A stretch of 64,000 nt of DNA from the NCBI GenBank assembly GCA_037783545.1, contig JBBELK010000028.1:1-64000 (forward strand), written 5' to 3'. This DNA is from Henricia sp. BOLD:AAB3569 (lineage: Eukaryota > Echinodermata > Asteroidea > Spinulosida > Echinasteridae). This document shows positions 1-64,000 of this stretch, piece by piece (position 1 is the first letter of the stretch; each line of letters starts with the position of its first letter). The translations under genes were made by a program, and so were the position numbers. A model generated the notes under the pieces. The model was given only the letters and a program-made list of their open reading frames with translations. It was not told the origin of the DNA and ran no database searches.

Positions 1-1345
1 TCAAAGTGTGTCCCAAATACCGGCAAATTTGGAAATCAAGGAATTTTTCAACCAACTTCAAATTTTGCATGCTCCCAAACTGTATATATTCCGCACTTGT
101 CATGCAAAATTGACAGATTTTCGCTGGGAAATGACGGAGAAATTTCAGAGTTTAGGGAAAACGGAGCTCGGCTACGTGGTTACTCCCCTAACCGTGGCTG
201 TTGGGACACCCTGCGCTGCGCTGGTGTACATTTGTACGGCCGTTGACTCACCCCAGATTGTGACGGGAATTAGGTCAAAGTGTGTCCCAAATGCCGTCAA
301 ATTTGGAAATCAAGGAATTTTCCAACCAACTTCAAATTTTGCATGCTCCAAACTGTATATATTCCGCACTTGTCATGCAAAATTGACAGATTTTCGCTGG
401 GAAATGACGGAGAAATTTCAGAGTTTAGGGAAAACGGAGCTCGGCTACGAGGTTATTCCCCTAACCGTGGCTGTTGGGACACCCTGCGCTGCGCTAGTGT
501 ACATTTGTACGGCCGTTGACTCACCCCAGATTGTGACGGTAATTAGGTCAAAGTGTGTCCCAAATGCCGGAAAATTTGGAAATCAAGGAATTTTCCAACC
601 AACTTCAAATTTTGCATGCTCCAAACTGTATATATTCCGCACTTGTCATGCAAAATTGACAGATTTTCGCTGGGGAATGACTGAGAAATTTCAGAGTTTA
701 GGGAAAACGGAGCTCGGCTACGTGGTTATTCCCCTAACCGTGGCTGTTGGGACACCGTGCGCTGCGCTGGTGTACATTTGTACGGCCGTTGACTCACCCC
801 AGATTGTGACGGGAATTAGGTCAAAGTGTGTCCCAAATGCCGGCAATTTTGGAAATCAAGGAATTTTCCAACCAACTTCAAATTTTGCATGCTCCAAACT
901 GTATATATTCCGCACTTGTCATGCAAAATTGACAGATTTTCGCTGGGAAATGACGGAGAAATTTCAGAGTTTAGGGAAAACGGAGCTCGGCTACGTGGTT
1001 ATTCCCCTAACCGTGGCTGTTCGGAAACACTGCGCTGCGCTGGTGTACATTTGTACGGCCGTTGACTCACCCCAGATTGTGACGGGAATTAGGTCAAAGT
1101 GTGTCCCAAATGCCGGCAAATTTGGAAATCAAGGAATTTTCCAACCAACTTCAAATTTTGCATGCTCCAAACTGTATATATTCCGCACTTGTCATGCAAA
1201 ATTGACAGATTTTCGCAGGGAAATGACGGAGAAATTTCAGAGTTTAGGGAAAACGGAGCTCGGCTACGTGGTTATTCCCCTAACCGTGGCTGTTGGGGAC
1301 ACCCTGCGCTGCGCTGGTGTACATTTGTACGGCCGTTGACTCACC
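1..1345 (+). repeat. Higher-order block L1, copy 1 (five monomers)
   Basis: Five consecutive monomers carry an ordered set of private variants: CAAATACCGG, GCCGTCAAA, GGCTACGAGG, GCGCTAGTGT, GACGGTAATT, GCCGGAAAA, GGGGAATGACTGAG, GGCAATTTTGG, GTTCGGAAACAC and TTCGCAGGG. The same variants recur in the same order starting at 6819, offset 6818 bp and shrinking to 6816 through two 1-bp indels. The shared order shows a block duplication, not independent mutation. The left boundary is lost at the window edge. Confidence 0.85.
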
Positions 1346-1644
1346 CCAGATTGTGACGGGAATTAGGTCAAAGTGTGTCCCAAATGCCGGCAAATTTGGA
1401 AATCAAGGAATTTTCCAACCAACTTCAAATTTTGCATGCTCCAAACTGTATATATTCCGCACTTGTCATGCAAAATTGACAGATTTTCGCTGGGAAATGA
1501 CGGAGAAATTTCAGAGTTTAGGGAAAACGGAGCTCGGCTACGTGGTTATTCCCTAACCGTGGCTGTTGGGACACCCTGCGCTGCGCTGGTGTACATTTGT
1601 ACGGCCATTGACTCACCCCAGATTGTGACGGGAATTAGGTCAAA

Positions 1645-3030
1645 GTGTGTCCCCAATGGCGGCAAATTTGGAAATCAAGGAATTTTCCAACCAACTTCAA
1701 ATTTTGCATGCTCCAAACTGTATATATTCCGCACTTGTCATGCAAAATTGACAGATTTTCGCTGGGGAATGACGGAGAAATTTCAGAGTTTAGGGAAAAC
1801 GGAGCTCGGCTACGTGGTTATTCCCCTAACCGTGGCTGTTGGGACACCCTGCGCTGCGCTGGTGTACATTTGTACGGCCGTTGACTCACCCCAGATTGTG
1901 ACGGGAATTAGGTCAAAGTGTGTCCCAAATCCCGGCAAATTTGGAAATCAAGGAATTTTCCAACCAACTTCAAATTTTGCATGCTCCAAACTGTATATAT
2001 TCCGCACTTGTCATGCAAAATTGACAGATTTTCGCTGGGAAATGACGGAGAAATTTCAGAGTTTAGTGAAAACGGAGCTCGGCTACGTGGTTACTCCCCT
2101 AACCGTGGCTGTTGGGACACCCTGCGCTGCGCTGGTGTACATTTGTACGGCCGTTGACTCACCCCAGATTGTGACGGGAATTAGGTCAAAGTGTGTCCCA
2201 AATGCCGGCAAATTTGGAAATCAAGGAATTTTCCAACCAACTTCAAATTTTGCATGTTCCAAACTGTATATATTCCGCACTTGTCATGCAAAATTGACAG
2301 ATTTTCGCTGGGAAATGACGGAGAAATTTCAGAGTTTAGGGAAAACGGAGCTCGGCTACCTGGTTATTCCCCTAACCGTGGCTGTTGGGACACCCTGCGC
2401 TGCGCTGGTGTACATTTGTACGGCCGTTGACTCACCCCAGATTGTGACGGGAATTAGGTCAAAGTGTGTCCCAAATGCCGGCAAATTTGGAAATCAAGGA
2501 ATTTTCCAACCAACTTCAAATTTTGCATGCTCCAAACTGTATATATTCCGCACTTGTCATGCAAAATTGACAGATTTTCGCTGGGAAATGACGGAGAAAT
2601 TTCAGAGTTTAGGGAAAACGGAGCTCGGCTACGTGGTTATTCCCCTAACCGTGGCTGTTGGGACACCCTGCGCTGCGCTGGTGTACATTTGTACGGCCGT
2701 TGACTCACCCCAGATTGTGACGGGAATTAGGTCAAAGTGTGTCCCCAATGGCGGCAAATTTGGAAATCAAGGAATTTTCCAACCAACTTCAAATTTTGCA
2801 TGCTCCAAACTGTATATATTCCGCACTTGTCATGCAAAATTGACAGATTTTCGCTGGGGAATGACGGAGAAATTTCAGAGTTTAGGGAAAACGGAGCTCG
2901 GCTACGTGGTTATTCCCCTAACCGTGGCTGTTGGGGACACCCTGCGCTGCGCTGGTGTACATTTGTACGGCCGTTGACTCACCCCAGATTGTGACGGGAA
3001 TTAGGTCAAAGTGTGTCCCAAATCCCGGCA
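1645..3030 (+). repeat. Four-monomer higher-order repeat (period ~1092 bp)
   Basis: The unit at 1645 carries CCCCAATGGCGG plus a GGGGAATGACGG variant and is followed at 1918 by CAAATCCCGG. The same pair recurs at 2737 and 3011, 1092-1093 bp later, which equals four monomers. This indicates a local four-unit duplication by unequal exchange. The second copy also has one extra G in the GTTGGGGACACC word near 2935, which shifts the frame. Confidence 0.75.
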
Positions 3031-6000
3031 AATTTGGAAATCAAGGAATTTTCCAACCAACTTCAAATTTTGCATGCTCCAAACTGTATATATTCCGCAC
3101 TTGTCATGCAAAATTGACAGATTTTCGCTGGGAAATGACGGAGAAATTTCAGAGTTTAGGGAAAACGGAGCTCGGCTACGTGGTTATTCCCCTAACCGTG
3201 GCTGTTGGGACACCCTGCGTTGCGCTGGTGTACATTTGTACGGCCGTTGACTCATCCCAGATTGTGACGGAATTAGGTCAAAGTGTGTCCCAAATGCCGG
3301 CAAATTTGGAAATCAAGGAATTTTCCAACCCAACTTCAAATTTTGCATGCTCCAAACTGTATATATTCCGCACTTGTCATGCAAAATTGAAAGATTTTCG
3401 CTGGGAAATGACGGAGAAATTTCAGAGTTTAGGGAAAACGGAGCTCGGCTACGTGGTTATTTCCCTAACCGTGGCTGTTGGGACACCCTGCGCTGCGCTG
3501 GTGTACATTTGTACGGCCGTTGACTTACCCCAGATTGTGACGGGAATTAGGTCAAAGTGTGTCCCAAATGCCGGCAAATTTGGAAATCAAGGAATTTTCC
3601 AACCAACTTCAAATTTTGCATGCTCCAAACTGTATATATTCCGCACTTGTCATGCAAAATTGACAGATTTTCGCTGGGAAATGACGGAGAAATTAGAAAA
3701 CGGAGCTCGGCTACGTGGTTATTCCCCTAACCATGGCTGTTGGGACACCCTGCGCTGCCGCTGGTGTACATTTGTACGGCCGTTGACTCACCCCAGATTG
3801 TGACGGGAATTAGGTCAAAGTGTGTCCCAAATGCCGGCAAATTTGGAAATCAAGGAATTTTCCAACCAACTTCAAATTTTGCATGCTCCAAACTGTATAT
3901 ATTCCGCACTTGTCATGCAAAATTGAAAGATTTTCGCTGGGAAATGACGGAGAAATTTCAGAGTTTAGGGAAAACGGAGCTCGGCTACGTGGTTATTCCC
4001 CTAACCGTGGCTGTTGGGACACCCTGCGCTGCGCTGGTGTACATTTGTAAGGCCGTTGACTCACCCCAGATTGTGACGGGAATTAGGTCAAAGTGTGTCC
4101 CAAATGCCGGCAAATTTGGAAATCAAGGAATTTTCCAACCAACTTCAAATTTTGCATGCTCCAAACTGTATATATTCCGCACTTGTCATGCAAAATTGAC
4201 AGATTTTCGCTGGGAAATGACGGAGAAATTTCAGAGTTTAGGGAAAACGGAGCTTGGCTACGTGGTTACTCCCCTAACCGTGGCTGTTGGGACACCCTGC
4301 GCTGCGCTGGTGTACATTTGTACGGCCGTTGACTCACACCCAGATTGTGACGGGAATTAGGTCAAAGTGTGTCCCAAATGCCGGCAAATTTGGAAATCAA
4401 GGAATTTTCCAACGAACTTCAAATTTTGCATGCTCCAAACTGTATATATTCCGCACTTGTCATGCAAATTGACAGATTTTCGCTGGGAAATGACGGAGAA
4501 ATTTCAGAGTTTAGGGAAAACGGAGCTCGGCTACGTGGTTACTCCCCTAACCGTGGCTGTTGGGACACCCTGCGCTGCGCTGGTGTACATTTGTACGGCC
4601 GTTGACTCACCCCAGATTGTGACCGGAATTAGGTCAAAGTGTGTCCCAAATGCCGGCAAATTTGGAAATCAAGGAATTTTCCAACCAACTTCAAATTTTG
4701 CATGCTCCAAACTGTATATATTCCGCACTTGTCATGCAAAATTGACAGATTTTCGCTGGGAAATGACGGAGAAATTTCAGAGTTTAGGGAAAACGGAGCT
4801 CGGCTACGTGGTTATTCCCCTAACCGTGGCTGTTGGGACACCCTGCGCTGCGCTGGTGTACATTTGTACGGCCGTTGACTCACCCCAGATTGTGACGGGA
4901 ATTAGGTCAAAGTGTGTCCCAAATGCCGGCAAATTTGGAAATCAAGGAATTTTCCAACCAACTTCAAATTTTGCATGCTCCAATCTGTATATATTCCGCA
5001 CTTGTCATGCAAAATTGACAGATTTTCGCTGGGAAATGACGGAGAAATTTCAGAGTTTAGGGAAAACGGAGCTTGGCTACGTGGTTACTCCCCTAACCGT
5101 GGCTGTTGGGACACCCTGCGCTGCGCTGGTGTACATTTGTACGGCCGTTGACTCACCCCAGATTGTGACGGGAATTAGGTCAAAGTGTGTCCCAAATGCC
5201 GGCAAATTTGGAAATCAAGGAATTTTCCAACCAACTTCAAATTTTGCATGCTCCAATCTGTATATATTCCGCACTTGTCATGCAAAATTGACAGATTTTC
5301 GCTGGGAAATGACGGAGAAATTTCAGGGTTTAGGGAAAACGGAGCTCGGCTACGTGGTTATTCCCCTAACCATGGCTGTTGGGACACCCTGCGCTGCGCT
5401 GGTGTACATTTGTACGGCCGTTGACTCACCCCAGATTGTGACGGGAATTAGGTCAAAGTGTGTCCCAAATGCCGGCAAATTTGGAAATCAAGGAATTTTC
5501 CAACCAACTTCAAATTTTGCATGCTCCAAACTGTATATATTCCGCACTTGTCATTGCAAAATTGACAGATTTTCGCTGGGAAATGACGGAGAAATTTCAG
5601 AGTTTAGGGAAAACGGAGCTCGGCTACGTGGTTATTCCCCTAACCGTGGCTGTTGGGACACCCTGCGCTGCGCTGGTGTACATTTGTAAGGCCGTTGACT
5701 CACCCCAGATTGTGACGGGAATTAGGTCAAAGTGTGTCCCAAATGCCGGCAAATTTGGAAATCAAGGAATTTTCCAACCAACTTCAAATTTTGCATGCTC
5801 CAAACTGTATATATTCCGCACTTGTCATGCAAAATTGACAAATTTTCGCTGGGAAATGACGGAGAAATTTCAGAGTTTAGGGAAAACGGAGCTCGGCTAC
5901 GTGGTTACTCCCCTAACCGTGGCTGTTGGGACACCCTGCGCTGCGCTGGTGTACATTTGTACGGCCGTTGACTCACCCCAGATTGTGACGGGAATTAGGT

Positions 6001-6818
6001 CAAAGTGTGTCCCAAATGCCGGCAAATTTGGAAATCAAGGAATTTTCCAACCAACTTCAAATTTAGCATGCTCCGAACTGTATATATTCCGCACTTGTCA
6101 TGCAAAATTGACAGATTTTCGCTGGGAAATGACGGAGAAATTTCAGAGTTTAGGGAAAACGGAGCTCGGCTACGTTGTTATTCCCCTAACCGTGGCTGTT
6201 GGAACACCCTGCGCTGCGCTGGTGTACATTTGTACGGCCGTTGACTCACCCCAGATTGTGACGGGAATTAGGTCAAAGTGTGTCCCAAATGCCGGCAAAT
6301 TTGGAAATCAAGGAATTTTCCAACCAACTTCAAATTTTGCATGCTCCAAACTGTATATATTCCGCACTTGTCATGCAAAATTGACAGATTTTCGCTGGGA
6401 AATGACGGAGAAATTTCAGAGTTTAGTGAAAACGGAGCTCGGCTACGTGGTTACTCCCCTAACCGTGGCTGTTGGGACACCCTGCGCTGCGCTGGTGTAC
6501 ATTTGTACGGCCGTTGACTCACCCCAGATTGTGACGGGAATTAGGTCAAAGTGTGTCCCAAATGCCGGCAAATTTGGAAATCAAGGAATTTTCCAACCAA
6601 CTTCAAATTTTGCATGCTCCAAACTGTATATATTCCGCACTTGTCATGCAAAATTGACAGATTTTCGCTGGGAAATGACGGAGAAATTTCAGAGTTTAGG
6701 GAAAACGGAGCTCGGCTACGTGGTTATTCCCCTAACCGTGGCTGTTGGGACACCCTGCGCTGCGCTGGTGTACATTTGTACGGCCGTTGACTCACCCCAG
6801 ATTGTGACGGGAATTAGG

Positions 6819-8160
6819 TCAAAGTGTGTCCCAAATACCGGCAAATTTGGAAATCAAGGAATTTTTCAACCAACTTCAAATTTTGCATGCTCCAAACTGT
6901 ATATATTCCGCACTTGTCATGCAAAATTGACAGATTTTCGCTGGGAAATGACGGAGAAATTTCAGAGTTTAGGGAAAACGGAGCTCGGCTACGTGGTTAC
7001 TCCCCTAACCGTGGCTGTTGGGACACCCTGCGCTGCGCTGGTGTACATTTGTACGGCCGTTGACTCACCCCAGATTGTGACGGGAATTAGGTCAAAGTGT
7101 GTCCCAAATGCCGTCAAATTTGGAAATCAAGGAATTTTCCAACCAACTTCAAATTTTGCATGCTCCAAACTGTATATATTCCGCACTTGTCATGCAAAAT
7201 TGACAGATTTTCGCTGGGAAATGACGGAGAAATTTCAGAGTTTAGGGAAAACGGAGCTCGGCTACGAGGTTATTCCCCTAACCGTGGCTGTTGGGACACC
7301 CTGCGCTGCGCTAGTGTACATTTGTACGGCCGTTGACTCACCCCAGATTGTGACGGTAATTAGGTCAAAGTGTGTCCCAAATGCCGGAAAATTTGGAAAT
7401 CAAGGAATTTTCCAACCAACTTCAAATTTTGCATGCTCCAAACTGTATATATTCCGCACTTGTCATGCAAAATTGACAGATTTTCGCTGGGGAATGACTG
7501 AGAAATTTCAGAGTTTAGGGAAAACGGAGCTCGGCTACGTGGTTATTCCCCTAACCGTGGCTGTTGGGACACCGTGCGCTGCGCTGGTGTACATTTGTAC
7601 GGCCGTTGACTCACCCCAGATTGTGACGGGAATTAGGTCAAAGTGTGTCCCAAATGCCGGCAATTTTGGAAATCAAGGAATTTTCCAACCAACTTCAAAT
7701 TTTGCATGCTCCAAACTGTATATATTCCGCACTTGTCATGCAAAATTGACAGATTTTCGCTGGGAAATGACGGAGAAATTTCAGAGTTTAGGAAAACGGA
7801 GCTCGGCTACGTGGTTATTCCCCTAACCGTGGCTGTTCGGAAACACTGCGCTGCGCTGGTGTACATTTGTACGGCCGTTGACTCACCCCAGATTGTGACG
7901 GGAATTAGGTCAAAGTGTGTCCCAAATGCCGGCAAATTTGGAAATCAAGGAATTTTCCAACCAACTTCAAATTTTGCATGCTCCAAACTGTATATATTCC
8001 GCACTTGTCATGCAAAATTGACAGATTTTCGCAGGGAAATGACGGAGAAATTTCAGAGTTTAGGGAAAACGGAGCTCGGCTACGTGGTTATTCCCCTAAC
8101 CGTGGCTGTTGGGACACCCTGCGCTGCGCTGGTGTACATTTGTACGGCCGTTGACTCACC
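6819..8160 (+). repeat. Higher-order block L1, copy 2
   Basis: Five monomers repeat the private variants of 1-1345 in the same order. Small differences remain: the extra C near 75 in copy 1 is absent here, and copy 2 lost one G near 7791 in the word TTTAGGAAAACGG. The private signature ends near 8160; the following monomers have the common type. Confidence 0.85.
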
Positions 8161-8734
8161 CCAGATTGTGACGGGAATTAGGTCAAAGTGTGTCCCAAAT
8201 GCCGGCAAATTTGGAAATCAAGGAATTTTCCAACCAACTTCAAATTTTTGCATGCTCCAAACTGTATATATTCCGCACTTGTCATGCAAAATTGACAGAT
8301 TTTCGCTGGGAAATGACGGAGAAATTTCAGAGTTTAGGGAAAACGGAGCTCGGCTACGTGGTTATTCCCCTAACCGTGGCTGTTGGGACACCCTGCGCTG
8401 CGCTGGTGTACATTTGTACGGCCGTTGACTCACCCCAGATTGTGACGGGAATTAGGTCAAAGTGTGTCCCAAATGCCGGCAAATTTGGAAATCAAGGAAT
8501 TTTCCAACCAACTCCAAATTTTGCATGCTCCAAACTGTATATATTCCGCACTTGTCATGCAAAATTGACAGATTTTCGCTGGGAAATGACGGAGAAATTT
8601 CAGAGTTTAGGGAAAACGGAGCTCGGCTACGTGGTTATTCCCCTAACCGTGGCTGTTGGGACACCCTGCGCTGCGCTGGTGTACATTTGTACGGCCGTTG
8701 ACTCACCCCAGATTGTGACGGGAATTAGGTCAAA

Positions 8735-9190
8735 GTGTGTCCCAAATGCCGGCAATTTTGGAAATCAAGGAATTTTCCAACCAACTTCAATTTTGCATGC
8801 TCCAAACTGTATATATTCCGCACTTGTCATGCAAAATTGACAGATTTTCGCTGGGAAATGACGGAGAAATTTCCGAGTTTAGGGAAAACGGAGCTCGGCT
8901 ACGTGGTTATTCCCCTAACCGTGGCTGTTCGGAAACACTGCGCTGCGCTGGTGTACATTTGTACGGCCGTTGACTCACCCCAGATTGTGACGGAATTAGG
9001 TCAAAGTGTGTCCCAAATGCCGGCAAATTTGGAAATCAAGGAATTTTCCAACCAACTTCAAATTTTGCATGCTCCAAACTGTATATATTCCGCACTTGTC
9101 ATGCAAAATTGACAGATTTTCGCAGGGAATGACGGAGAAATTTCAGAGTTTAGGGAAAACGGAGCTCGGCTACGTGGTTATTCCCCTAAC
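8735..9190 (+). repeat. Higher-order block L1, partial third copy
   Basis: Monomers at 8735 and 9006 reproduce the last two units of block L1: GGCAATTTTGG, GTTCGGAAACAC and then TTCGCAGGG. They lie exactly 1092 bp (four monomers) after the equivalent unit at 7643. Added single-base losses (GACGGAATTAGG near 8992 and CGCAGGGAATGACGG near 9123) post-date the copying. Confidence 0.7.
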
Positions 9191-10399
9191 CGTGGCTGTT
9201 GGGACACCCTGCGCTGCGCTGGTGTACATTTGTACGGCCGTTGACCTCACCCCAGATTGTGACGGGAATTAGGTCAAAGTGTGTCCCAAATGCCGGCAAA
9301 TTTGGAAATCAAGGAATTTTCCAACCAACTTCAAATTTTGCATGCTCCAAACTGTATATATTCCGCACTTGTCATGCAAAATTGACAGATTTTCGCTGGG
9401 AAATGACAATTTCAGAGTTTAGGGAAAACGGAGCTCGGCTACGTGGTTATTCCCCTAATCGTGGCTGTTGGGACACCCTGCGCTGCGCTGGTGTACATTT
9501 GTACGGCCGTTGACTCACCCCAGATTGTGACGGGAATTAGGTCAAAGTGTGTCCCAAATGCCGGCAAATTTGGAAATCAAGGAATTTTCCAACCAACTTC
9601 AAATTTTGCATGCTCCAAACTGTATATATTCCGCACTTGTCATGCAAAATTGACAGATTTTCGCTGGGAAATGACGGAGAAATTTCAGAGTTTAGGGAAA
9701 ACGGAGCTCGGCTACGTGGTTATTCCCCTAACCGTGGCTGTTGGGACACCCTGCGCTGCGCTGGTGTACATTTGTACGGCCGTTGACTCACCCCAGATTG
9801 TGACGGGAATTAGGTCAAAGTGTGTCCCAAATGCCGGCAAATTTGGAAATCAAGGAATTTTCCAACCAACTTCAAATTGTGCATGCTCCAAACTGTATAT
9901 ATTCCGCACTTGTCATGCAAAATTGACAGATTTTCGCTGGGAAATGACGGAGAAATTTCAGAGTTTAGGGAAAACGGAGCTCGGCTACGTGGTTATTCCC
10001 CTAACCGTGGCTGTTGGGACACCCTGCGCTGCGCTGGTGTACATTTGTACGGCCGTTGACTCACCCCAGATTGTGACGGGAATTAGGTCAAAGTGTGTCC
10101 CAAATGCCGGCAAATTTGGAAATCAAGGAATTTTCCAACCAACTTCAAATTTTGCATGCTCCAAACTGTATATATTCCGCACTTGTCATGCAAAATTGAC
10201 AGATTTTCGCTGGGAAATGACGGAGACATTTCAGAGTTTAGGGAAAACGGAGCTCGGCTACGTGGTTATTCCCCTAACCGTGGCTGTTGGGACACCCTGC
10301 GCTGCGCTGGTGTACATTTGTACGGCCGTTGACTCACCCCAGATTGTGACGGGAATTAGGTCAAAGTGTGTCCCAAATGCAGGCAAATTTGGAAATCAA

Positions 10400-13300
10400 G
10401 TGAATTTTCCAACCAACTTCAAATTTTGCATGCTCCAAACTGTATATATTCCGCACTTGTCATGCAAAATTGACAGATTTTCGCTGGGAAATGACGGAGA
10501 AATTTCAGAGTTTAGGGAAAAACGGAGCTCGGCTACGTGGTTATTCCCCTAACCGTGGCTGTTGGGACACCCTGCGCTGCGCTGGTGTACATTTGTACGG
10601 CCGTTGACTCACCCCAGATTGTGACGGGAATTAGGTCAAAGTGTGTCCCAAATGCCGGCAAATTTGGAAATCAAGGAATTTTCCAACCAACTTCAAATTT
10701 TGCATGCTCCAAACTGTATATATTCCGCACTTGTCATGCAAAATTGACAGATTTTCGCTGGGAAATGACGGAGAAATTTCAGAGTTTAGGGAAAACGGAG
10801 CTCGGCTACGTGGTTATTCCCCTAACCGTGGCTGTTGGGACACCCTGCGCTGCGCTGGTGTACATTTGTACGGCCGTTGACTCACCCCAGATTGTGACGG
10901 GAATTAGGTCAAAGTGTGTCCCAAATGCCGGCAAATTTGGAAATCAAGGAATTTTCCAACCAACTTCAAATTTTGCATGCTCCACAAACTGTATATATTC
11001 CGCACTTGTCATGCAAAATTGACAGATTTTCGCTGGGAAATGACTGAGAAATTTCAGAGTTTAGGGAAAACGGAGCTCGGCTACGTGGTTATTCCCCTAA
11101 CCGTGGCTGTTGGGACACCCTGCGCTGCGCTGGTGTACATTTGTACGGCCGTTGACTCACACCCAGATTGTGACGGGAATTAGGTCAAAGTGTGTCCCAA
11201 ATGCCGGCAAATTTGGAAATCAAGGAATTTTCCAACCAACTTCAAATTTTGCATGCTCCAAACTGTATATATTCCGCACTTGTCATGCAAAATTGACAGA
11301 TTTTCGCTGGGAAATGACGGAGAAATTTCAGAGTTTAGGGAAAACGGAGCTCGGCTACGTGGTTATTCCCCTAACCGTGGCTGTTGGGACACCCTGCGCT
11401 GCGCTGGTGTACATTTGTACGGCCGTTGACTCACCCCAGATTGTGACGGGAATTAGGTCAAAGTGTGTCCCAAATGCCGGCAAATTTGGAAATCAAGGAA
11501 TTTTCCAACCAACTTCAAATTTTGCATGCTCCAAACTGTATATATTCCGCACTTGTCATGCAAAATTGACAGATTTTCGATGGAAATGACGGAGACATTT
11601 CAGAGTTTAGGGAAAACGGAGCTCGGCTACGTGGTTATTCCCCTAACCGTGGCTGTTGGGACACCCTGCGCTGCGCTGGTGTACATTTGTACGGCCGTTG
11701 ACTCACCCCAGATTGTGACGGGAATTAGGTCAAAGTGTGTCCCAAATGCCGGCAAATTTGGAAATCAAGGAATTTTCCAACCAACTTCAAATTTTGCATG
11801 CTCCACAAACTGTATATATTCCGCACTTGTCATGCAAAATTGACAGATTTTCGCTGGGAAATGACGGAGAATTTCAGAGTTTAGGGAAAACGGAGCTCGG
11901 CTACGTGGTTATTTCCCTAACCGTGGCTGTTGGGACACCCTGCGCTGCGCTGGTGTACATTTGTACGGCCGTTGACTCACCCCAGATTGTGACGGGAATT
12001 AGGTCAAAGTGTGTCCCAAATGCCGGCAAATTTGGAAATCAAGGAATTTTCCAACCAACTTCAAATTTTGCATGCTCCAAACTGTATATATTCCGCACTT
12101 GTCATGCAAAATTGACAGATTTTCGCTGGGAAATGACGAGAAATTTCAGAGTTTAGGGAAAACGGAGCTCGGCTACGTGGTTATTCCCCTAATCGTGGCT
12201 GTTGGGACACCCTGCGCTGCGCTGGTGTACATTTGTACGGCCGTTGACTCACCCCAGATTGTGACGGGAATTAGGTCAAAGTGTGTCCCAAATGCCGGCA
12301 AATTTGGAAATCAAGGAATTTTCCAACCAACTTCAAATTTTGCATGCTCCAAACTGTATATATTCCGCACTTGTCATGCAAAATTGACAGATTTTCGCTG
12401 GGAAATGACGGAGAAATTTCAGAGTTTAGGGAAAACGGAGCTCGGCTACGTGGTTATTCCCCTAACCGTGGCTGTTGGGACACCCTGCGCTGCGCTGGTG
12501 TACATTTGTACGGCCGTTGACTCACCCCAGATTGTGACGGGAATTAGGTCAAAGTGTGTCCCAAATGCCGGCAAATTTGGAAATCAAGGAATTTTCCAAC
12601 CAACTTCAAATTTTGCATGCTCCAAACTGTATATATTCCGCACTTGTCATGCAAAATTGACAGATTTTCGCTGGGAAATGACGGAGAAATTTCAGAGTTT
12701 AGGGAAAAACGGAGCTCGGCTACGTGGTTATTCCCCCTAAACGTGGCTGTTGGGACACCCTGCGCTGCGCTGGTGTACATTTGTACGGCCGTTGACCTCA
12801 CCCCAGATTGTGACGGGAATTAGGTCAAAGTGTGTCCCAAATGCCGGCAAATTAGGAAATCAAGGGAATTTTTCAACCAACTTCAATTTTGCATGCTCCA
12901 CAAACTGTATATATTCCGCACTTGTCATGCAAAATTGACAGATTTTCGATGGATAATGACGGAGACATTTCAGAGTTTAGGGAAAACGGAGCTCGGCTAC
13001 GTGGTTATTCCCCTAACCGTGGCTGTTGGGACACCCTGCGCTGCGCTGGTGTACATTTGTACGGCCGTTGACTCACCCCCAGATTGTGGACGGGAATTAG
13101 GTCAAAGTGTGTCCCAAATGCCGGCAAATTTGGAAATCAAGGAATTTTTCCAACCAACTTCAAATTTTGCATGCTCCACAAACTGTATATATTCCGCACT
13201 TGTCATGCAAAATTGACAGATTTTCGCTGGGAAATGACGGAGAAATTTCAGAGTTTAGGGAAAACGGAGCTCGGCTACGTGGTTATTCCCCTAACCGTGG

Positions 13301-17160: not shown

Positions 17161-17164
17161 CTGT

Positions 17165-20580: not shown

Positions 20581-20584
20581 CATG

Positions 20585-35385: not shown

Positions 35386-35553
35386 ATCATATGGGGACTG
35401 TCTAATTGCGCGTATGTGGTGAGCTGGCATTCTCACTTGGCATGCCTCACGATGGATAATAATTTTCCAAAAGTACAAAAGCAACAATCATATGGTGACT
35501 GTCTTGCGGTGAGCTGGATTTCTCTCTTGGCATACCTCACAAGGGATAATAAT

Positions 35554-43345: not shown

Positions 43346-43619
43346 TTTCCAAATTTGCCGGCATTTGGGACACACTTTGACCTAATTCCCGTCACAATCT
43401 GGGGTGAGTCAACGGCCGTACAAATGTACACAAGCGCAGCGCAGGGTGTCCCAACAGCCACGGTTAGGGGAATAACCACGTAGCCGAGCTCCTCTTTCCC
43501 TAAACTCTGACATTTCTCCGTCATTTCCCAGCGAAAATCTGTCAATTTTGCATGACAAGTGCGGAATATATACAGTTTGGAGCATGCAAAATTTGAAGTT
43601 GGTTGGAAAATTCCTTGAT

Positions 43620-50100: not shown

Positions 50101-50276
50101 TCTGACATTTCTCCGTCATTTCCCAGCGAAAATCTGTCAATTTTGCATGACAAGTGCGGAATATATACAGTTTGGAGCATGCACAATTTGAAGTTGGTTG
50201 GAAAATTCCTTGATTTCCAAATTTGTCGGCATTTGGGACACACTTTGACCTAATTCCCGTCACAATCTGGGGTGAG

Positions 50277-53200: not shown

Positions 53201-54640
53201 AAATTTGAAGTTGGTTGGAAAATTCCTTGATTTCCAAATTTGCCGGCATTTGGGACACACTTTGAACTAATTCCCGTCACAATCTGGGGTGAGTCAACGG
53301 CCGTACAAATGTACACCAGCGCATGCGCAGCGCAGGGTGTCCCAACAGCCACGGTTAGGGTAATAACCACGTAGCCGAGCTCCGCTTTCCCTAAACTCTG
53401 AAATTTCTCCGTCATTTCCCAGCGAAAATCTGTCAATTTTGCATGACAAGTGCGGAATATATACAGTTTGGAGCATGCAAAATTTGAAGTTGGTTGAAAA
53501 ATTCCTTGATTTCCAAATTTGCCGGCATTTGGGACACACTTTGACCTAATTCCCGTCACAATCTGGGGTGAGTCAACGGCCGTACAAATGTACACCAGCG
53601 CAGCGCAGGGTGTCCCAACAGCCACGGTTAGGGGAATAACCACGTAGCCGAGCTCCGCTTTCCCTAAACTCTGAAATTTCTCCGTCATTTCCTAGCGAAA
53701 ATCTGTCAATTTTGCATGACAAGTGCGGAATATATACAGTTTGGAGCATGCACAATTTGAAGTTGGTTGGAAAATTCCTTGATTTCCAAATTTGCCGGCA
53801 TTTGGGACACACTTTGACCTAATTCCCGTCACAATCTGGGGTGAGTCAACGGCCGTACAAATGTACACCAGCGCAGCGCAGGGTGTCCCAACAGCCACGG
53901 TTAGGGGAATAACCACGTAGCCGAGCTCCGCTTTCCCTAAACTCTGAAATTTCTCCGTCATTTCCCAGAGAAAATCTGTCAACCTTGCATGACAAGTGCG
54001 GAATATATACAGTTTGGAGCATGCAAAATTTGAAGTTGGTTGGAAAATTCCTTGATTTCCAAATTTGCCGGCATTTGGGACACACTTTGACCTAATTCCC
54101 GTCACAATCTGGGGTGAGTCAACGGCCGAACAAATGTACACAAGCGCAGCGCAGGGTGTCCCAACAGCCACGGTTAGGGGAATAACCACGTAGCCGAGCT
54201 CCGCTTTCCCTAAACTCTGAAATTTCTCCGTCATTTCCCAGCGAAAATCTGTCAATTTTGCATGACAAGTGCGGAATATATACAGTTTGGAGCATGCACA
54301 ATTTGAAGTTGGTTCGAAAATTCCTTGATTTCCAAATTTGCCGGCATTTGGGACACACTTTGACCTAATTCCCGTCACAATCTGGGGTGAGTCAACGGCC
54401 GTACAAATGTACACAAGCGCAGCGCAGGGTGTCCCAACAGCCACGGTTAGGGGAATAACAACGTAGCCGAGCTCCGCTTTCCCTAAACTCTGAAATTTCT
54501 CCGTCATTTCCCAGCGAAAATCTGTCAATTTTGCATGACAAGTGCGGAATATATACAGTTTGGAGCATGCAAAATTTGAAGTTGGTTGGAAAATTCCTTG
54601 ATTTCCAAATTTGCCGGCATTTGGGACACACTTTGACCTA
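50277..54640 (-). repeat. Mosaic higher-order repeats with CAACCTTGCATG variant
   Basis: Monomers carrying CCAGAGAAAATCTGTCAACC recur at about 49852, 50950, 51775 and 53968. Units with TCCTAGCAAAAATC recur 825 bp apart (50674 and 51499), and units with GGTTCGAAAATTCC recur 2192 bp apart (52119 and 54311). These are partial, overlapping duplications of three, four and eight monomers. They indicate repeated unequal exchange of different register sizes in one place. Confidence 0.7.
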
Positions 54641-57600
54641 ATTCCCGTCACAATCTGGGGTGAGTCAACGGCCGTACAAATGTACACAAGCGCAGCGCAG
54701 GGTGTCCCAACAGCCACGGTTAGGGGAATAACCACGTAGCCGAGCTCCGCTTTCCCTAAACTCTGAAATTTCTCCGTCATTTCCCAGCGAAAATCTGTCA
54801 ATTTTGCATGACAAGTGCGGAATATATACAGTTTGGAGCATGCAAAATTTGAAGTTGGTTGTAAAAAATTCCTTGATTTCCAAATTTGCCGGCATTTGGG
54901 ACACACTTTGACCTAATTCCCGTCACAATCTGGGGTGAGTCAACGGCCGTACAAATGTACACCAGCGCAGCGCAGGGTGTCCCAACAGCCACGGTTAGGG
55001 GAATAACCACGTAGCCGAGCTCCGCTTTCCCTAAACTCTGAAATTTCTCCGTCATTTCCCAGCGAAAATCTGTCAATTTTGCATGACAAGTGCGGAATAT
55101 ATACAGTTTGGAGCATGCCAAATTTGAAGTTGGTTGGAAAATTCCTTGATTTCCAAATTTGCCGGCATTTGGGACACACTTTGACCTAATTCCCGTCACA
55201 ATCTGGGGTGAGTCAACGGCCGTACAAATGTACACAAGCGCAGGGCAGGGTGTCCCAACAGCCACGGTTAGGGGAATAACCACGTAGCCGAGCTCCGCTT
55301 TCCCTAAACTCTGAAATTTCTCCGTCATTTCCCAGCGAAAATCTGTCAATTTTGCATGACAAGTGCGGAATATATACAGTTTGGAGCATGCAAAATTTGA
55401 AGTTGGTTGGAAAATTCCTTGATTTCCAAATTTGCCGGCATTTGGGACACACTTTGACCTAATTCCCGTCACAATCTGGGGTGAGTCAACGGCCGTACAA
55501 ATGTACACCAGCGCATGCGCAGCGCAGGGTGTCCCAACAGCCACGGTTAGGGGAATAACCACGTAGCCGAGCTCCGCTTTCCCTAAACTCTGAAATTTCT
55601 CCGTTATTTCCCAGCGAAAATCTGTCAATTTTGCATGACAAGTGCGGAATATATACAGTTTGGAGCATGCCAAATTTGAAGTTGGTTGGAAAATTCCTTG
55701 ATTTCCAAATTTGCCGGCATTTGGGACACACTTTGACATAATTCCCGTCACAATCTGGGGTGAGTCAACGGCCGTACAAATGTACACAAGCGCAGCGCAG
55801 GGTGTCCCAACAGCCACGGTTAGGGGAATAACCACGTAGCCGAGCTCCGCTTTCCCTAAACTCTGAAATTTCTCCGTCATTTCCCAGCGAAAATCTGTCA
55901 ATTTTGCATGACAAGTGCGGAATATATACAGTTTGGAGCATGCAAAATTTGAAGTTGGTTGTAAAAAATTCCTTGATTTCCAAATTTGCCGGCATTTGGG
56001 ACACACTTTGACCTAATTCCCGTCACAATCTGGGGTGAGTCAACGGCCGTACAAATGTACACCAGCGCAGCGCAGGGTGTCCCAACAGCCACGGTTAGGG
56101 GAATAACCACGTAGCCGAGCTCCGCTTTCCCTAAACTCTGAAATTTCTCCGTCATTTCCCAGCGAAAATCTGTCAATTTTGCATGACAAGTGCGGAATAT
56201 ATACAGTTTGGAGCATGCCAAATTTGAAGTTGGTCGGAAAATTCCTTGATTTCCAAATTTGCCGGCATTTGGGACACACTTTGACCTAATTCCCGTCACA
56301 ATCTGGGGTGAGTCAACGGCCGTACAAATGTACACAAGCGCAGGGCAGGGTGTCCCAACAGCCACGGTTAGGGGAATAACCACGTAGCCGAGCTCCGCTT
56401 TCCCTAAACTCTGAAATTTCTCCGTCATTTCCCAGCGAAAATCTGTCAATTTTGCATGACAAGTGCGGAATATATACAGTTTGGAGCATGCAAAATTTGA
56501 AGTTGGTTGGAAAATTCCTTGATTTCCAAATTTGCCGGCATTTAGGACACACTTTGACCTAATTCCCGTCACAATCTGGGGTGAGTCAACGGCCGTACAA
56601 ATGTACACCAGCGCATGCGCAGCGCAGGGTGTCCCAACAGCCACGGTTAGGGGAATAACCACGTAGCCGAGCTCCGCTATCCCTAAACTCTGAAATTTCT
56701 CCGTTATTTCCCAGCGAAAATCTGTCAATTTTGCATGACAAGTGCGGAATATATACAGTTTGGAGCATGCCAAATTTGAAGTTGGTTGGAAAATTCCTTG
56801 ATTTCCAAATTTGCCGGCATTTGGGACACACTTTGACATAATTCCCGTCACAATCTGGGGTGAGTCAACGGCCGTACAAATGTACACAAGCGCAGCGCAG
56901 GGTGTCCCAACAGCCACGGTTAGGGGAATAACCACGTAGCCGAGCTCCGCTTTCCCTAAACTCTGAAATTTCTCCGTCATTTCCCAGCGAAAATCTGTCA
57001 ATTTTGCATGACAAGTGCGGAATATATACAGTTTGGAGCATGCAAAATTTGAAGTTGGTTGGAAAATTCCTTGATTTCCAAATTTGCCGGTATTTGGGAC
57101 ACACTTTGACCTAATTCCCGTCACAATCTGGGGTGAGTCAACGGCCGTACAAATGTACACAAGCGCAGCGCAGGGTGTCCCAACAGCCACGGTTAGGGGA
57201 ATAACCACGTAGCCGAGCTCCGCTTTCACTAAACTCTGAAATTTCTCAGTCATTTCCCAGCGAAAATCTGTCAATTTTGCATGACAAGTGCGGAATATAT
57301 ACAGTTTGGAGCATGCAAAATTTGAAGTTGGTTGGAAAATTCCTTGATTTCCAAATTTGCCGGCATTTGGGACACACTTTGACCTAATTCCCGTCACAAT
57401 CTGGGGTGAGTCAACGGCCGTACAAATGTACACAAGCGCAGCGCAGGGTGTCCCAACAGCCACGGTTAGGGGAATAACCACGTAGCCGAGCTCCGCTTTC
57501 CCTAAACTCTGACATTTCTCCGTCATTTCCCAGCGAAAATCTGTCAATTTTGCATGACAAGTGCGGAATATATACAGTTTGGAGCATGCAAAATTTGAAG

Positions 57601-58241
57601 TTGGTTGGAAAATTCCTTGATTTCCAAATTTGCCGGCATTTGGGACACACTTTGACCTAATTCCCGTCACAATCTGGGGTGAGTCAACGGCCGTACAAAT
57701 GTACACCAGCGCATGCGCAGCGCAGGGTGTCCCAACAGCCACGGTTAGGGGAATAACCACGTAGCCGAGCTCCGCTTTCCCTAAACTCTGAAATTTCTCC
57801 GTCATTTCCCAGCGAAAATCTGTCAATTTTGCATGACAAGTGCGGAATATATACAGTTTGGAGCATGCAACATTTGAAGTTGGTTGGAAAATTCCTTGAT
57901 TTCCAAATTTGCCGGCATTTGGGACACACTTTGACCTAATTCCCGTCACTATCTGGGGTGAGTCAACGGCCGTACAAATGTACACCAGCGCATGCGCAGC
58001 GCAGGGTGTCCCAACAGCCACGGTTAGGGGAATAACCACGTAGCCGAGCTCCGCTTTCCCTAAACTCTGACATTTCTCCGTCATTTCCCAGCGAAAATCT
58101 GTCAATTTTGAATGACAAGTGCGGAATATATACAGTTTGGAGCATGCAAAATTTGAAGTTGGTTGGAAAATTCCTTGATTTCCAAATTTGCCGGCATTTG
58201 GGACACACTTTGACCTAATTCCCGTCACAATCTGGGGTGAG

Positions 58242-59610
58242 TCAACGGCCGTACAAATGTACACAAGCGCAGCGCAGGGTGTCCCAACAGCCACGGTTAG
58301 GGGAATAACCACGTAGCCGAGCTCCGCTTTCCCTAAACTCTGACATTTCTCCGTCATTTCCCAGCGAAAATCTGTCAATTTTGCATGACAAGTGCGGAAT
58401 ATATACAGTTTGGAGCATGCAAAATTTGAAGTTGGTTGGAAAATTCCTTGATTTCCAAATTTGCCGGCATTTGGGACACACTTTGACCTAATTCCCGTCA
58501 CAATCTGGGGTGAGTCAACGGCCGTACAAATTTACACCAGCGTAGCGCAGGGTGTCCCAACAGCCACGGTTAGGGGAATAACCACGTAGCCGAGCTCCGC
58601 TTTCCCTAAACTCTGAAATTTCTCCGTCATTTCCCAGCGAAAATCTGTCAATTTTGCATGACAAGTGCGGAATATATACAGTTTGGAGCATGCAAAATTT
58701 GAAGTTGGTTGGAAAATTCCTTGATTTCCAAATTTGCCGGCATTTGGGACACACTTTGACCTAATTCCCGTCACAATCTGGGGTGAGTCAACGGCCGTAC
58801 AAATGTACACCAGCGCATGCGCAGCGCAGGGTGTCCCAACAGCCACGGTTAGGGGAATAACCACGTAGCCGAGCTCCGCTTTCCCTAAACTCTGACATTT
58901 CTCCGTCATTTCCCAGCGAAAATCTGTCAATTTTGCATGACAAGTGCGGAATATATACAGTTTGGAGCATGCAAAATGTGAAGTTGGTTGGAAAATTCCT
59001 TGATTTCCAAATTTGCCGGCATTTGGGACACACTTTGACCTAATTCCCGTCACAATCTGGGGTGAGTCAACGGCCGTACAAATGTACACCAGCGCAGCGC
59101 AGGGTGTCCCAACAGCCACGGTTAGGGGAATAACCACGTAGCCGAGCTCCGCTTTCCCTAAACTCTGAAATTTCTCCGTCATTTCCCAGCGAAAATCTGT
59201 CAATTGGGCATGAAAATTGCGGAATATATACAGTTTGGAGCATGCAAAATTTGAAGTTGGTTGGAAAATTCCTTGATTTCCAAATTTGCCGGCATTTGGG
59301 ACACACTTTGACCTAATTCCCGTCACAATCTGGGGTGAGTCAACGGCCGTACAAATGTACACAAGCGCAGCGCAGGGTGTCCCAACAGCCACGGTTAGGG
59401 GAATAACCACGTAGCCGAGCTCCGCTTTCCCTAAACTCTGAAATTTCTCCGTCATTTCCCAGCGAAAATCTGTCAATTTTGCATGACAAGTGCGGAATAT
59501 ATACAGTTTGGAGCATGCAAAATTTGAAGTTGGTTGTAAAAAATTCCTTGATTTCCAAATTTGCCGGCATTTGGGACACACTTTGACCTAATTCCCGTCA
59601 CAATCTGGGG
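58242..59610 (-). repeat. Higher-order block R2, copy 1 (offset 2198 bp)
   Basis: About 1.37 kb repeated at 60440-61808. Shared marks include AAATTTACACCAGCGTAGCG, CAATTGGGCATGAAAATTGC and the 275-bp AAAAAATTCC unit. The offset equals eight monomers, two of them 279 bp and one 275 bp. Confidence 0.8.
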
Positions 59611-60439
59611 TGAGTCAACGGCCGTACAAATGTACACAAGCGCAGGGCAGGGTGTCCCAACAGCCACGGTTAGGGGAATAACCACGTAGCCGAGCTCCGC
59701 TTTCCCTAAACTCTGAAATTTCTCCGTCATTTCCCAGCGAAAATCTGTCAATTTTGCATGACAAGTGCGGAATATATACAGTTTGGAGCATGCACAATTT
59801 GAAGTTGGTTGGAAAATTCCTTGATTTCCAAATTTGCCGGCATTTGGGACACACTTTGACCTAATTCCCGTCACAATCTGGGGTGAGTCAACGGCCGTAC
59901 AAATGTACACCAGCGCATGCGCAGCGCAGGGTGTCCCAACAGCCACGGTTAGGGGAATAACCACGTAGCCGAGCTCCGCTATCCCTAAACTCTGAAATTT
60001 CTCCGTTATTTCCCAGCGAAAATCTGTCAATTTTGCATGACAAGTGCGGAATATATACAGTTTGGAGCATGCCAAATTTGAAGTTGGTTGGAAAATTCCT
60101 TGATTTCCAAATTTGCCGGCATTTGGGACACACTTTGACATAATTCCCGTCACAATCTGGGGTGAGTCAACGGCCGTACAAATGTACACAAGCGCAGCGC
60201 AGGGTGTCCCAACAGCCACGGTTAGGGGAATAACCACGTAGCCGAGCTCCGCTTTCCCTAAACTCTGAAATTTCTCCGTCATTTCTCAGCGAAAATCTGT
60301 CAATTTTGCATGACAAGTGCGGAATATATACAGTTTGGAGCATGCAAAATTTGAAGTTGGTTGGAAAATTCCTTGATTTCCAAATTTGCCGGTATTTGGG
60401 ACACACTTTGACCTAATTCCCGTCACAATCTGGGGTGAG

Positions 60440-61808
60440 TCAACGGCCGTACAAATGTACACAAGCGCAGCGCAGGGTGTCCCAACAGCCACGGTTAGGG
60501 GAATAACCACGTAGCCGAGCTCCGCTTTCCCTAAACTCTGACATTTCTCCGTCATTTCCCAGCGAAAATCTGTCAATTTTGCATGACAAGTGCGGAATAT
60601 ATACAGTTTGGAGCATGCAAAATTTGAAGTTGGTTGGAAAATTCCTTGATTTCCAAATTTGCCGGCATTTGGGACACACTTTGACCTAATTCCCGTCACA
60701 ATCTGGGGTGAGTCAACGGCCGTACAAATTTACACCAGCGTAGCGCAGGGTGTCCCAACAGCCACGGTTAGGGGAATAACCACGTAGCCGAGCTCCGCTT
60801 TCCCTAAACTCTGAAATTTCTCCGTCATTTCCCAGCGAAAATCTGTCAATTTTGCATGACAAGTGCGGAATATATACAGTTTGGAGCATGCAAAATTTGA
60901 AGTTGGTTGGAAAATTCCTTGATTTCCAAATTTGCCGGCATTTGGGACACACTTTGACCTAATTCCCGTCACAATCTGGGGTGAGTCAACGGCCGTACAA
61001 ATGTACACCAGCGCATGCGCAGCGCAGGGTGTCCCAACAGCCACGGTTAGGGGAATAACCACGTAGCCGAGCTCCGCTTTCCCTAAACTCTGACATTTCT
61101 CCGTCATTTCCCAGCGAAAATCTGTCAATTTTGCATGACAAGTGCGGAATATATACAGTTTGGAGCATGCAAAATGTGAAGTTGGTTGGAAAATTCCTTG
61201 ATTTCCAAATTTGCCGGCATTTGGGACACACTTTGACCTAATTCCCGTCACAATCTGGGGTGAGTCAACGGCCGTACAAATGTACACCAGCGCAGCGCAG
61301 GGTGTCCCAACAGCCACGGTTAGGGGAATAACCACGTAGCCGAGCTCCGCTTTCCCTAAACTCTGAAATTTCTCCGTCATTTCCCAGCGAAAATCTGTCA
61401 ATTGGGCATGAAAATTGCGGAATATATACAGTTTGGAGCATGCAAAATTTGAAGTTGGTTGGAAAATTCCTTGATTTCCAAATTTGCCGGCATTTGGGAC
61501 ACACTTTGACCTAATTCCCGTCACAATCTGGGGTGAGTCAACGGCCGTACAAATGTACACAAGCGCAGCGCAGGGTGTCCCAACAGCCACGGTTAGGGGA
61601 ATAACCACGTAGCCGAGCTCCGCTTTCCCTAAACTCTGAAATTTCTCCGTCATTTCCCAGCGAAAATCTGTCAATTTTGCATGACAAGTGCGGAATATAT
61701 ACAGTTTGGAGCATGCAAAATTTGAAGTTGGTTGTAAAAAATTCCTTGATTTCCAAATTTGCCGGCATTTGGGACACACTTTGACCTAATTCCCGTCACA
61801 ATCTGGGG
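60440..61808 (-). repeat. Higher-order block R2, copy 2
   Basis: Repeats 58242-59610 with the same private marks. Its last three monomers (60986-61812) are repeated again at 61813-62639, an exact 827-bp step that includes a third CAATTGGGCATGAAAATTGC near 62226. Confidence 0.8.
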
Positions 61809-64000
61809 TGAGTCAACGGCCGTACAAATGTACACCAGCGCATGCGCAGCGCAGGGTGTCCCAACAGCCACGGTTAGGGGAATAACCACGTAGCCGAGCT
61901 CCGCTTTCCCTAAACTCTGACATTTCTCCGTCATTTCCCAGCGAAAATCTGTCAATTTTGCATGACAAGTGCGGAATATATACAGTTTGGAGCATGCAAA
62001 ATGTGAAGTTGGTTGGAAAATTCCTTGATTTCCAAATTTGCCGGCATTTGGGACACACTTTGACCTAATTCCCGTCACAATCTGGGGTGAGTCAACGGCC
62101 GTACAAATGTACACCAGCGCAGCGCAGGGTGTCCCAACAGCCACGGTTAGGGGAATAACCACGTAGCCGAGCTCCGCTTTCCCTAAACTCTGAAATTTCT
62201 CCGTCATTTCCCAGCGAAAATCTGTCAATTGGGCATGAAAATTGCGGAATATATACAGTTTGGAGCATGCAAAATTTGAAGTTGGTTGGAAAATTCCTTG
62301 ATTTCCAAATTTGCCGGCATTTGGGACACACTTTGACCTAATTCCCGTCACAATCTGGGGTGAGTCAACGGCCGTACAAATGTACACAAGCGCAGCGCAG
62401 GGTGTCCCAACAGCCACGGTTAGGGGAATAACCACGTAGCCGAGCTCCGCTTTCCCTAAACTCTGAAATTTCTCCGTCATTTCCCAGCGAAAATCTGTCA
62501 ATTTTGCATGACAAGTGCGGAATATATACAGTTTGGAGCATGCAAAATTTGAAGTTGGTTGTAAAAAATTCCTTGATTTCCAAATTTGCCGGCATTTGGG
62601 ACACACTTTGACCTAATTCCCGTCACAATCTGGGGTGAGTCAACGGCCGTACAAATGTACACAAGCGCAGGGCAGGGTGTCCCAACAGCCACGGTTAGGG
62701 GAATAACCACGTAGCCGAGCTCCGCTTTCCCTAAACTCTGAAATTTATCCGTCATTTCCCAGCGAAAATCTGTCAATGTTGCATGACAAGTGCGGAATAT
62801 ATACAGTTTGGAGCATGCAAAATTTGAAGTTGGTTGGAAAATTCCTTGATTTCCAAATTTGCCGGCATTTGGGACACACTTTGACCTAATTCCCGTCACA
62901 ATCTGGGGTGAGTCAACGGCCGTACAAATGTACACCAGCGCATGCGCAGCGCAGGGTGTCCCAACAGCCACGGTTAGGGGAATAACCACGTAGCCGAGCT
63001 CCGCTATCCCTAAACTCTGAAATTTCTCCGTTATTTCCCAGCGAAAATCTGTCAATTTTGCATGACAAGTGCGGAATATATACAGTTTGGAGCATGCCAA
63101 ATTTGAAGTTGGTTGGAAAATTCCTTGATTTCCAAATTTGCCGGCATTTGGGACACACGTTGACATAATTCCCGTCACAATCTGGGGTGAGTCAACGGCC
63201 GTACAAATGTACACAAGCGCAGCGCAGGGTGTCCCAACAGCCACGGTTAGGGGAATAACCACGTAGCCGAGCTCCGCTTTCACTAAACTCTGAAATTTCT
63301 CAGTCATTTCCCAACGAAAATCTGTCAATTTTGCATGACAAGTGCGGAATATATACAGTTTGGAGCATGCAAAATTTGAAGTTGGTTGGAAAATTCCTTG
63401 ATTTCCAAATTTGCCGGCATTTGGGACACACTTTGACCTAATTCCCGTCACAATCTGGGGTGAGTCAACGGCCGTACAAATGTACACCAGCGCATGCGCA
63501 GCGCAGGGTGTCCCAACAGCCACGGTTAGGGGAATAACCACGTAGCCGAGCTCCGCTTTCCCTAAACTCTGAAATTTCTCCGTCATTTCCCAGCGAAAAT
63601 CTGTCAATTTTGCATGACAAGTGCGGAATATATACAGTTTGGAGCATGCAAAATTTGAAGTTGGTTGGAAAATTCCTTGATTTCCAAATTTGCCGGCATT
63701 TGGGACACACTTTGACCTAATTCCCGTCACAATCTGGGGTGAGTCAACGGCCGTACAAATGTACACAAGCGCAGCGCAGGGTGTCGCAACAGCCACGGTT
63801 AGGGGAATAACCACGTAGCCGAGCTCCGCTTTCCCTAAACTCTGACATTTCTCCGTCATTTCCCAGCGAAAATCTGTCAATTTTGCATGACAAGTGCGGA
63901 ATATATACAGTTTGGAGCATGCAAAATGTGAAGTTGGTTGGAAAATTCCTTGATTTCCAAATTTGCCGGCATTTGGGACACACTTTGACCTAATTCCCGT

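What the first reader, a model, noticed from the sequence alone, without database searches (positions are those of the whole stretch)
1..64000. Two satellite arrays of the same family converge on an 8-kb spacer as a giant inverted repeat
Seen directly: ~29.4 kb of + strand monomers, ~8 kb of unrelated DNA, then at least 26.6 kb of - strand monomers. Neither array ends inside the window. A non-repetitive core between inverted repeat arms is reminiscent of fission-yeast-type centromere layout, and such inverted arms can drive fold-back, isochromosome or hairpin formation. Any centromere or origin role is inference only. Assembly joining of two arrays in opposite orientation is an alternative.
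Basis: partly seen in the sequence, partly recalled or inferred. Interest (0 to 1): 0.7.

Follow-up and report, generated by a model that had tools for sequence, protein, structure and literature searches.

The report
Satellite strand switch with embedded duplicon
Two long satellite-DNA arrays of the same family meet head-on across an 8-kb fragment of a multi-copy genomic repeat; this looks like a rearrangement scar of a kind known from other satellite arrays, not a dedicated centromere core.

Summary
Window 1-29,422 is a 273-bp satellite on +, 37,385-64,000 the same satellite on - (continuing to at least C28:112,000), and the 7,962 bp between hold no satellite. The centromere-like reading is not supported. 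The spacer is a fragment of a dispersed unit of at least 13.9 kb with an upstream DUF7869 gene exon; a probe across the left break finds 14 places, 13 of which continue as unit while only C28 breaks off into satellite. The arms are distinct subfamilies, separated by a fixed base (A in 108 of 108 left monomers, G in 264 of 265 right ones to C28:110,000), so a folded-read artefact is unlikely. Each junction probe finds one full-length match (1 of 40 scored; 1 of 18). Strand switches turned up in 5 of 13 satellite contigs with two or more sampled points (in two, one side is only a 72-84% relative). Best reading: an array-to-array rearrangement junction with an 8-kb repeat fragment caught in it. 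Satellite strand switches are known from primates and Tribolium. Raw reads, needed to exclude a misjoin, were not available.

The parts
1..29422 (+). Left satellite array, 273-bp monomers, subfamily 'A' (A at 0-based monomer position 159); ends after monomer position 170
   Evidence: TRF; wrap-around alignment, 108 of 108 monomers A; phase
29421..29423 (.). Left junction: satellite joined to the dispersed unit next to what looks like an intron/exon boundary (CTCTGC|AGG in two of three copies compared, CTCTAC|AGG in the third), about 2 bp of microhomology (GC); one full-length match in the assembly
   Evidence: (1 of 40 scored matches, 280 candidates)
29423..37384 (+). Spacer: 3' ~8 kb of a dispersed unit of at least 13.9 kb; other copies continue upstream, where one exon matches PF25273 (DUF7869)
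   Evidence: 98.55% over 6,138 bp and 97.7% over 1,489 bp to C129:46680-54562
29423..29565 (+). Reading frame that looks like the C-terminal exon of the unit's gene (lysine-rich tail); no Pfam match
29614..30486 (.). Fold-back element with long inverted arms inside the spacer
   Evidence: I1, I2, I5, I6
30632..30850 (.). Short inverted-repeat (MITE-like) element, arms 41 nt, 95% complementary
   Evidence: I4
30897..31753 (.). Dispersed insertion nested in the spacer, with inverted ends; 9-bp overlap at the empty site in C206 suggests a 9-bp target duplication; present also in the C129:47-kb copy, absent from C206 (two copies), C307, C842, C556, C1464, C153, C163, C1081 and the C129:1,700-kb copy
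35386..36960 (+). Minisatellite region (77/90/167-bp periods) inside the spacer
   Evidence: TRF arrays 35,721-36,878; flanking repeated copies from 35,386
37384..37385 (.). Right junction: spacer leaves the 14 listed unit copies at or near here; about 1 bp of microhomology; one full-length match in the assembly; same base at which the C129 copy leaves the unit
37385..64000 (-). Right satellite array, subfamily 'G' (98 of 98 window monomers, partial ones included), continuing beyond the window to at least C28:112,000

Best explanation
This is a strand switch in a large satellite domain, formed when two satellite arrays of opposite orientation and different subfamily became joined with an 8-kb fragment of a dispersed genomic repeat between them. 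Shown: orientations, subfamily difference, spacer identity, truncation at 29,422 relative to 13 other places, junction sequences with one full-length match each, and other strand switches in the assembly. Inferred: a double-strand-break or replication-template-switch event (1-2 bp microhomology at both joins) made an inversion or array-array fusion in which the fragment was caught, or the unit first inserted at the right border and was then cut at the left by the rearrangement. After that the arms evolved separately. No function of its own is needed; the satellite may be centromeric or heterochromatic, but nothing here tests that.
For: Arms differ at one site (108/108 A; 264/265 G) and cluster by arm. 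Both types exist elsewhere: A in sampled pieces of C1820, C1582 and C277, G in C345. Spacer 98.55% identical to C129. A probe across the left break finds 14 places, of which 13 continue and C28 alone has the 3' side only; no half-copy with the 5' side only was found (14 of 14 candidates scored). One full-length match for each junction: 1 of 40 scored and 1 of 18. Microhomology 2 and 1 bp, read by eye; arm phases 170 and 223. Strand switches in C1582, C592, C345 and C649 too. Another mobile element sits in the same contig's satellite at C28:130 kb.
Against: The right junction falls at the same base where the C129 copy leaves the unit, which hints at a natural end of the unit and so an insertion rather than random filler. 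No reciprocal breakpoint was found, as a simple inversion inside the unit should leave. Raw reads were not seen, so the join itself is unproven.
Confidence: 0.62

Rival explanations
1. Macro-dyad organisation: strand switches are a regular feature of this satellite domain, kept because inverted subarrays fold or organise (peri)centromeric chromatin, as proposed for Tribolium beetles.
For: 5 of 13 satellite contigs sampled at two or more points contain a switch; 4 of the 5 (C28, C1582, C345, C649) have the same convergent polarity. Tribolium precedent (PMC13081366, passages, first part of the Discussion).
Against: Eight of 13 contigs showed no switch at the points sampled, one of them (C1411) on + at all sampled points over its 194 kb. 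The C28 junctions have no second full-length match and C592 has room for at most 0.9 kb between strands. In C345 and C649 one side is a relative only 72-84% alike, so those may be joins of different satellites. The switch points of the other four contigs were not read.
Confidence: 0.17
2. Assembly misjoin of two arrays through a multi-copy repeat.
For: The spacer is a multi-copy repeat, the classic place for a wrong join; both ends of the contig are satellite.
Against: A misjoin inside the spacer still needs unit copies that abut satellite at these two sites, and no other listed match does so. The spacer copy differs by at least about 1% from each copy listed. Another contig, C592, changes strand within 0.9 kb, though that could be a misjoin too.
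Confidence: 0.16
3. Fission-yeast-like centromere: unique central core flanked by inverted outer repeats.
For: Overall geometry only.
Against: The core is a fragment of a dispersed repeat, not among the listed hits on other satellite contigs. The arms are satellites with a fixed subfamily difference. No CENP-B-like box in the monomer: best 6 of 9 core positions (motif recalled, and its absence is weak evidence).
Confidence: 0.04

Closest known systems
Inversions within primate alpha-satellite arrays (PMC11062924, passages read)
   Same: One satellite family changes strand within an array; [quoted passage not shown]
   Different: Here the arms are different subfamilies and an 8-kb non-satellite fragment lies at the switch; 273-bp monomer; not read-validated.
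Macro-dyad symmetries of Tribolium satellites (PMC13081366, passages and first part of the Discussion)
   Same: Inverted subarrays of one satellite, up to tens of kb, at several places in a genome.
   Different: Tribolium madens inversion sites are conserved sequences (thousands of copies at 98-99% similarity in the passages read); here both junctions have a single full-length match and an 8-kb spacer intervenes.
Fission-yeast-type regional centromere (recalled)
   Same: Inverted repeats around a central segment.
   Different: Central segment is a dispersed repeat fragment, arms are long homogeneous satellites; no centromere evidence.
[quoted passage not shown]
   Same: Repeat-derived DNA inside a satellite array; a non-LTR element lies in the same contig at C28:130 kb.
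   Different: A simple insertion leaves flanks in the same orientation and one subfamily; here they are opposite and different.

Membership tests
Fission-yeast-type regional centromere | Central core unique or specific to centromeres | tested here: not met
   Spacer sequence in a dispersed unit at 13 other places; no satellite around the copies whose surroundings were read
Fission-yeast-type regional centromere | Flanking repeats in inverted orientation | tested here: met
   + on the left, - on the right
Fission-yeast-type regional centromere | Same kind of core layout at several chromosomes | tested here: inconclusive
   This spacer and its junctions were not found on other satellite contigs among the scored hits; other switch points were not read and contigs are not assigned to chromosomes
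Fission-yeast-type regional centromere | Centromeric histone over the core | not testable with these tools
   No chromatin data
Satellite array inversion (primate alpha-satellite type) | Monomers of one family change strand within one contig | tested here: met
Satellite array inversion (primate alpha-satellite type) | Breakpoint confirmed by long reads | not testable with these tools
   No reads available
Tribolium-type macro-dyad symmetry | Strand switches recur through the satellite domain | tested here: inconclusive
   5 of 13 contigs sampled at sparse points; at least 39 contigs show a match to the family
Tribolium-type macro-dyad symmetry | Conserved sequence at switch sites | tested here: not met
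   For C28: one full-length match per junction probe. The other four switch points were not read
Dispersed DUF7869-gene unit (spacer) | High identity to other copies | tested here: met
   97.7-98.6% to C129, 98.8% to C206, 95-97% to C307 for the main aligned blocks
Dispersed DUF7869-gene unit (spacer) | Carries the DUF7869 exon | tested here: not met
   The exon lies upstream, at C129:42066-42494; the C28 copy starts 3' of it, at the base matching C129:46680

The most novel reading that the evidence does not exclude
The satellite domain of this unnamed eukaryotic genome is built as many convergent inverted subarrays, a macro-dyad architecture outside Tribolium, and repeat fragments captured at switch points act as recombination insulators that let the two arms homogenise separately (fixed A versus fixed G).
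Probability: 0.13. Interest if true: 0.62.

Novelty: new member of a known kind. Interest (0 to 1): 0.3.

Why it matters
It gives a base-resolved satellite strand switch with a datable spacer: the nested insertion shared with one other copy orders events, and the fixed A/G difference shows that two inverted arms only 8 kb apart keep separate homogenisation histories. If switches prove frequent across the satellite contigs, macro-dyad organisation would not be confined to Tribolium, where PMC13081366 says it has so far been documented. As it stands it is a good example of a known phenomenon and a warning against reading every inverted satellite layout as a centromere.

Tried and rejected
Higher-order repeats: no strong period in either arm. 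Lag identities are flat (0.978-0.982 left, 0.970-0.974 right, on the monomers cut cleanly; medians 0.982 and 0.981 on the full ones). Autocorrelation of four variant sites in the right arm stayed below the shuffle 95% point except site 65 at lag 28, 0.22 against 0.21, so a weak local periodicity is not excluded.

Local inversion near 20-22 kb, suspected from an AT-skew change: rejected, the 108 left monomers align on one strand.

CENP-B-like box: best 6 of 9 core positions. Rfam at gathering thresholds: no match in 28,000-39,000. Spacer as satellite-derived: rejected, no match at E 1e-3. Pfam on the spacer's terminal frame: nothing; the spacer's other frames were not scanned.

Spacer as an intact transposon with ends at both junctions: rejected for the left side (13 of 14 places continue). 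Open for the right: C129 leaves the unit at the same base and no other copy follows it further among 40 scored of 642 candidates, but C129's flank is itself a dispersed repeat starting there, and the right flanks of the other copies were not read.

Literature: a four-term search for a 273-bp satellite gave 0 papers and one search gave 0; some searches gave listings, of which five papers were opened by passages or sections: PMC13081366, PMC13427858 (only cites the former), PMC12350169, PMC11062924 and PMC12222009 (nothing relevant in the passages shown). 10.1126/science.abl4178 is not held. The other listed papers were not opened.

Full report
What is there. The window is bases 1-64,000 of contig C28 (153,433 bp) in a 740.7-Mb, 2,104-contig assembly held without a name. 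Bases 1-29,422 are 273-bp satellite monomers on the + strand, 97% matches by TRF; bases 37,385-64,000 are the same satellite on the - strand. The right array runs on through C28:110,000 (265 monomers counted from 37,385, partial ones included) and 112,000. At 130,001-132,000 there is a non-LTR retrotransposon (a zinc knuckle below the Pfam cut-off and an endonuclease domain, E 1.6e-7), and at 151,001-153,433 satellite on the - strand again. The stretches between were not read. The 7,962 bp between the arms have no satellite match at E 1e-3.

The arms are two subfamilies. A wrap-around alignment of the monomers shows one fixed difference: A in 108 of 108 left monomers, G in 264 of 265 right monomers; in the window alone the right arm is G in 98 of 98. 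Three other sites differ in frequency by 0.15 or more. In the window's 204 full monomers the nearest neighbour lies in the same arm in 99.5% of cases; without sites 159 and 221 it is 91.8%, against a mean of 50.6% in 20 label shuffles of that reduced set. Both types occur on other contigs: A in sampled pieces of C1820, C1582 and C277, G in C345. A left-arm monomer matched 13 contigs, a right-arm monomer 12 further ones (their type was not checked), and junction probes 14 more by 41-42 bp of satellite only: at least 39 of 2,104 contigs. The monomer searches and the left-junction search each scored only 40 candidates, so this is a lower bound. The arms are therefore not a recent mirror duplication, and a folded-back read would not give two subfamilies.

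The spacer is a piece of a dispersed repeat. It matches C129:46,680-54,562 at 98.55% over 6,138 bp and 97.7% over 1,489 bp, C206 at 98.8% and C307 at 95-97% in the main blocks. Those copies continue upstream for kilobases and match each other there at 90-96%; the shared stretch in C129 runs from about 40,611 to 54,562, and an exon in it, C129:42,066-42,494, matches PF25273 (DUF7869), E 1.5e-31. A 100-bp probe across the left break finds 14 places: 13 continue across it, and only C28 stops (14 of 14 candidates scored). No satellite lies in the 90 kb of C129, the 30 kb each of C206 and C307, or the seven 4-6 kb loci around copies that I read; the surroundings of the remaining copies were not read. 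The break lies beside what looks like an intron/exon boundary; I take that as coincidence. A nested insertion at 30,897-31,753 is present in C28 and the C129:47-kb copy and missing from C206, C307, C842, C556, C1464, C153, C163, C1081 and the second C129 copy, so these two copies probably share a recent ancestor. On the right, C28 leaves the 14 listed unit copies at or near 37,384 (probe positions 31 to 45; 8 of 14 at exactly 40). The C129 copy leaves the unit at the same base: its flank beyond is a different dispersed repeat, and none of the other copies follows it among the 40 scored of 642 candidates. That favours a natural 3' end of the unit there, without proving it, because C129's flank could be an insertion; C206 (first copy) and C307 stop earlier.

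The junctions. For the left one, 1 of 40 scored matches (280 candidates) spans it, 5 carry only the unit side and 34 only the satellite side; for the right, 1 of 18 spans it, 14 carry only the unit side and 3 only the satellite side. Microhomology is about 2 bp (GC) and 1 bp, read by eye. The left arm stops after monomer position 170 and the right after 223. A plain insertion would leave one orientation and one subfamily on both sides, so insertion alone does not explain the structure; a rearrangement is needed.

Other switches. Small probes and search hits gave strands at two or more points in 13 satellite contigs. Five contain a switch: C28; C1582 (+ at points to 122,100, - from 130,001); C592 (- to 68,100, + from 69,001); C345 (a relative of 72-81% identity on + to about 87 kb, then the family on - from 90,001); C649 (a relative of 73-84% on + at 1 and 400,001, - at 411,602). 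Eight showed none at the points sampled: C277, C612, C714, C1411, C1450, C1512, C1554, C1820; some of these were sampled at only two or three places. C612 also had points without a match, as had C345 at 84,001. C1582 carries A-type and then G-type on + before its switch, so subfamily change and strand change are separable. None of the other satellite contigs appears among the listed hits of the spacer (40 candidates scored each).

What it most likely is. A junction between two opposed satellite arrays with an 8-kb repeat fragment trapped in it, made by break repair or template switching (inferred), confidence 0.62. The rivals are regular macro-dyad organisation (0.17), an assembly misjoin through the repeat (0.16) and a centromere core (0.04).

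What is known. Inversions in alpha-satellite arrays are reported in orangutan and macaque, with ultra-long-read validation described in the methods (PMC11062924, passages). Tribolium madens has macro-dyads up to 75 kb with conserved inversion sites; its authors write that such macro-dyads were so far documented only in Tribolium (PMC13081366, passages, part of the Discussion). A two-term search for 'satellite' and 'macro-dyad' found 2 papers, the second only citing the first. I therefore file this as a new member of a known kind. The fission-yeast comparison fails on the uniqueness of the core.

Noticed in passing
window 30897-31753: An ~850-bp dispersed insertion with inverted ends; the empty site in C206 overlaps by 9 bp (248,259-248,267), suggesting a 9-bp target duplication. 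About two dozen further copies, most at 93-98%, among the listed hits.
   Followed up: partly
window 35386-36960: Minisatellite of 77/90-bp units inside the dispersed unit, arranged differently in other copies.
   Followed up: no
L018:2066-2494 (C129:42066-42494): DUF7869 exon (PF25273, E 1.5e-31) in a multi-copy, apparently intron-containing gene unit (13 other places at the left-break probe); several copies reach the same 3' end while the copies compared start at different places.
   Followed up: partly
L047-L050 (C345:1-80300): A related satellite 72-81% identical to the 273-bp family at the four points sampled in C345; weaker matches on + in C649, and similar-looking letters at the end of C612.
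   Followed up: partly
L038 (C28:130001-132000): Non-LTR retrotransposon inside the right satellite domain.
   Followed up: partly
L019:6929-8583: Reverse transcriptase frames (PF00078) downstream of the C129 copy of the unit.
   Followed up: no
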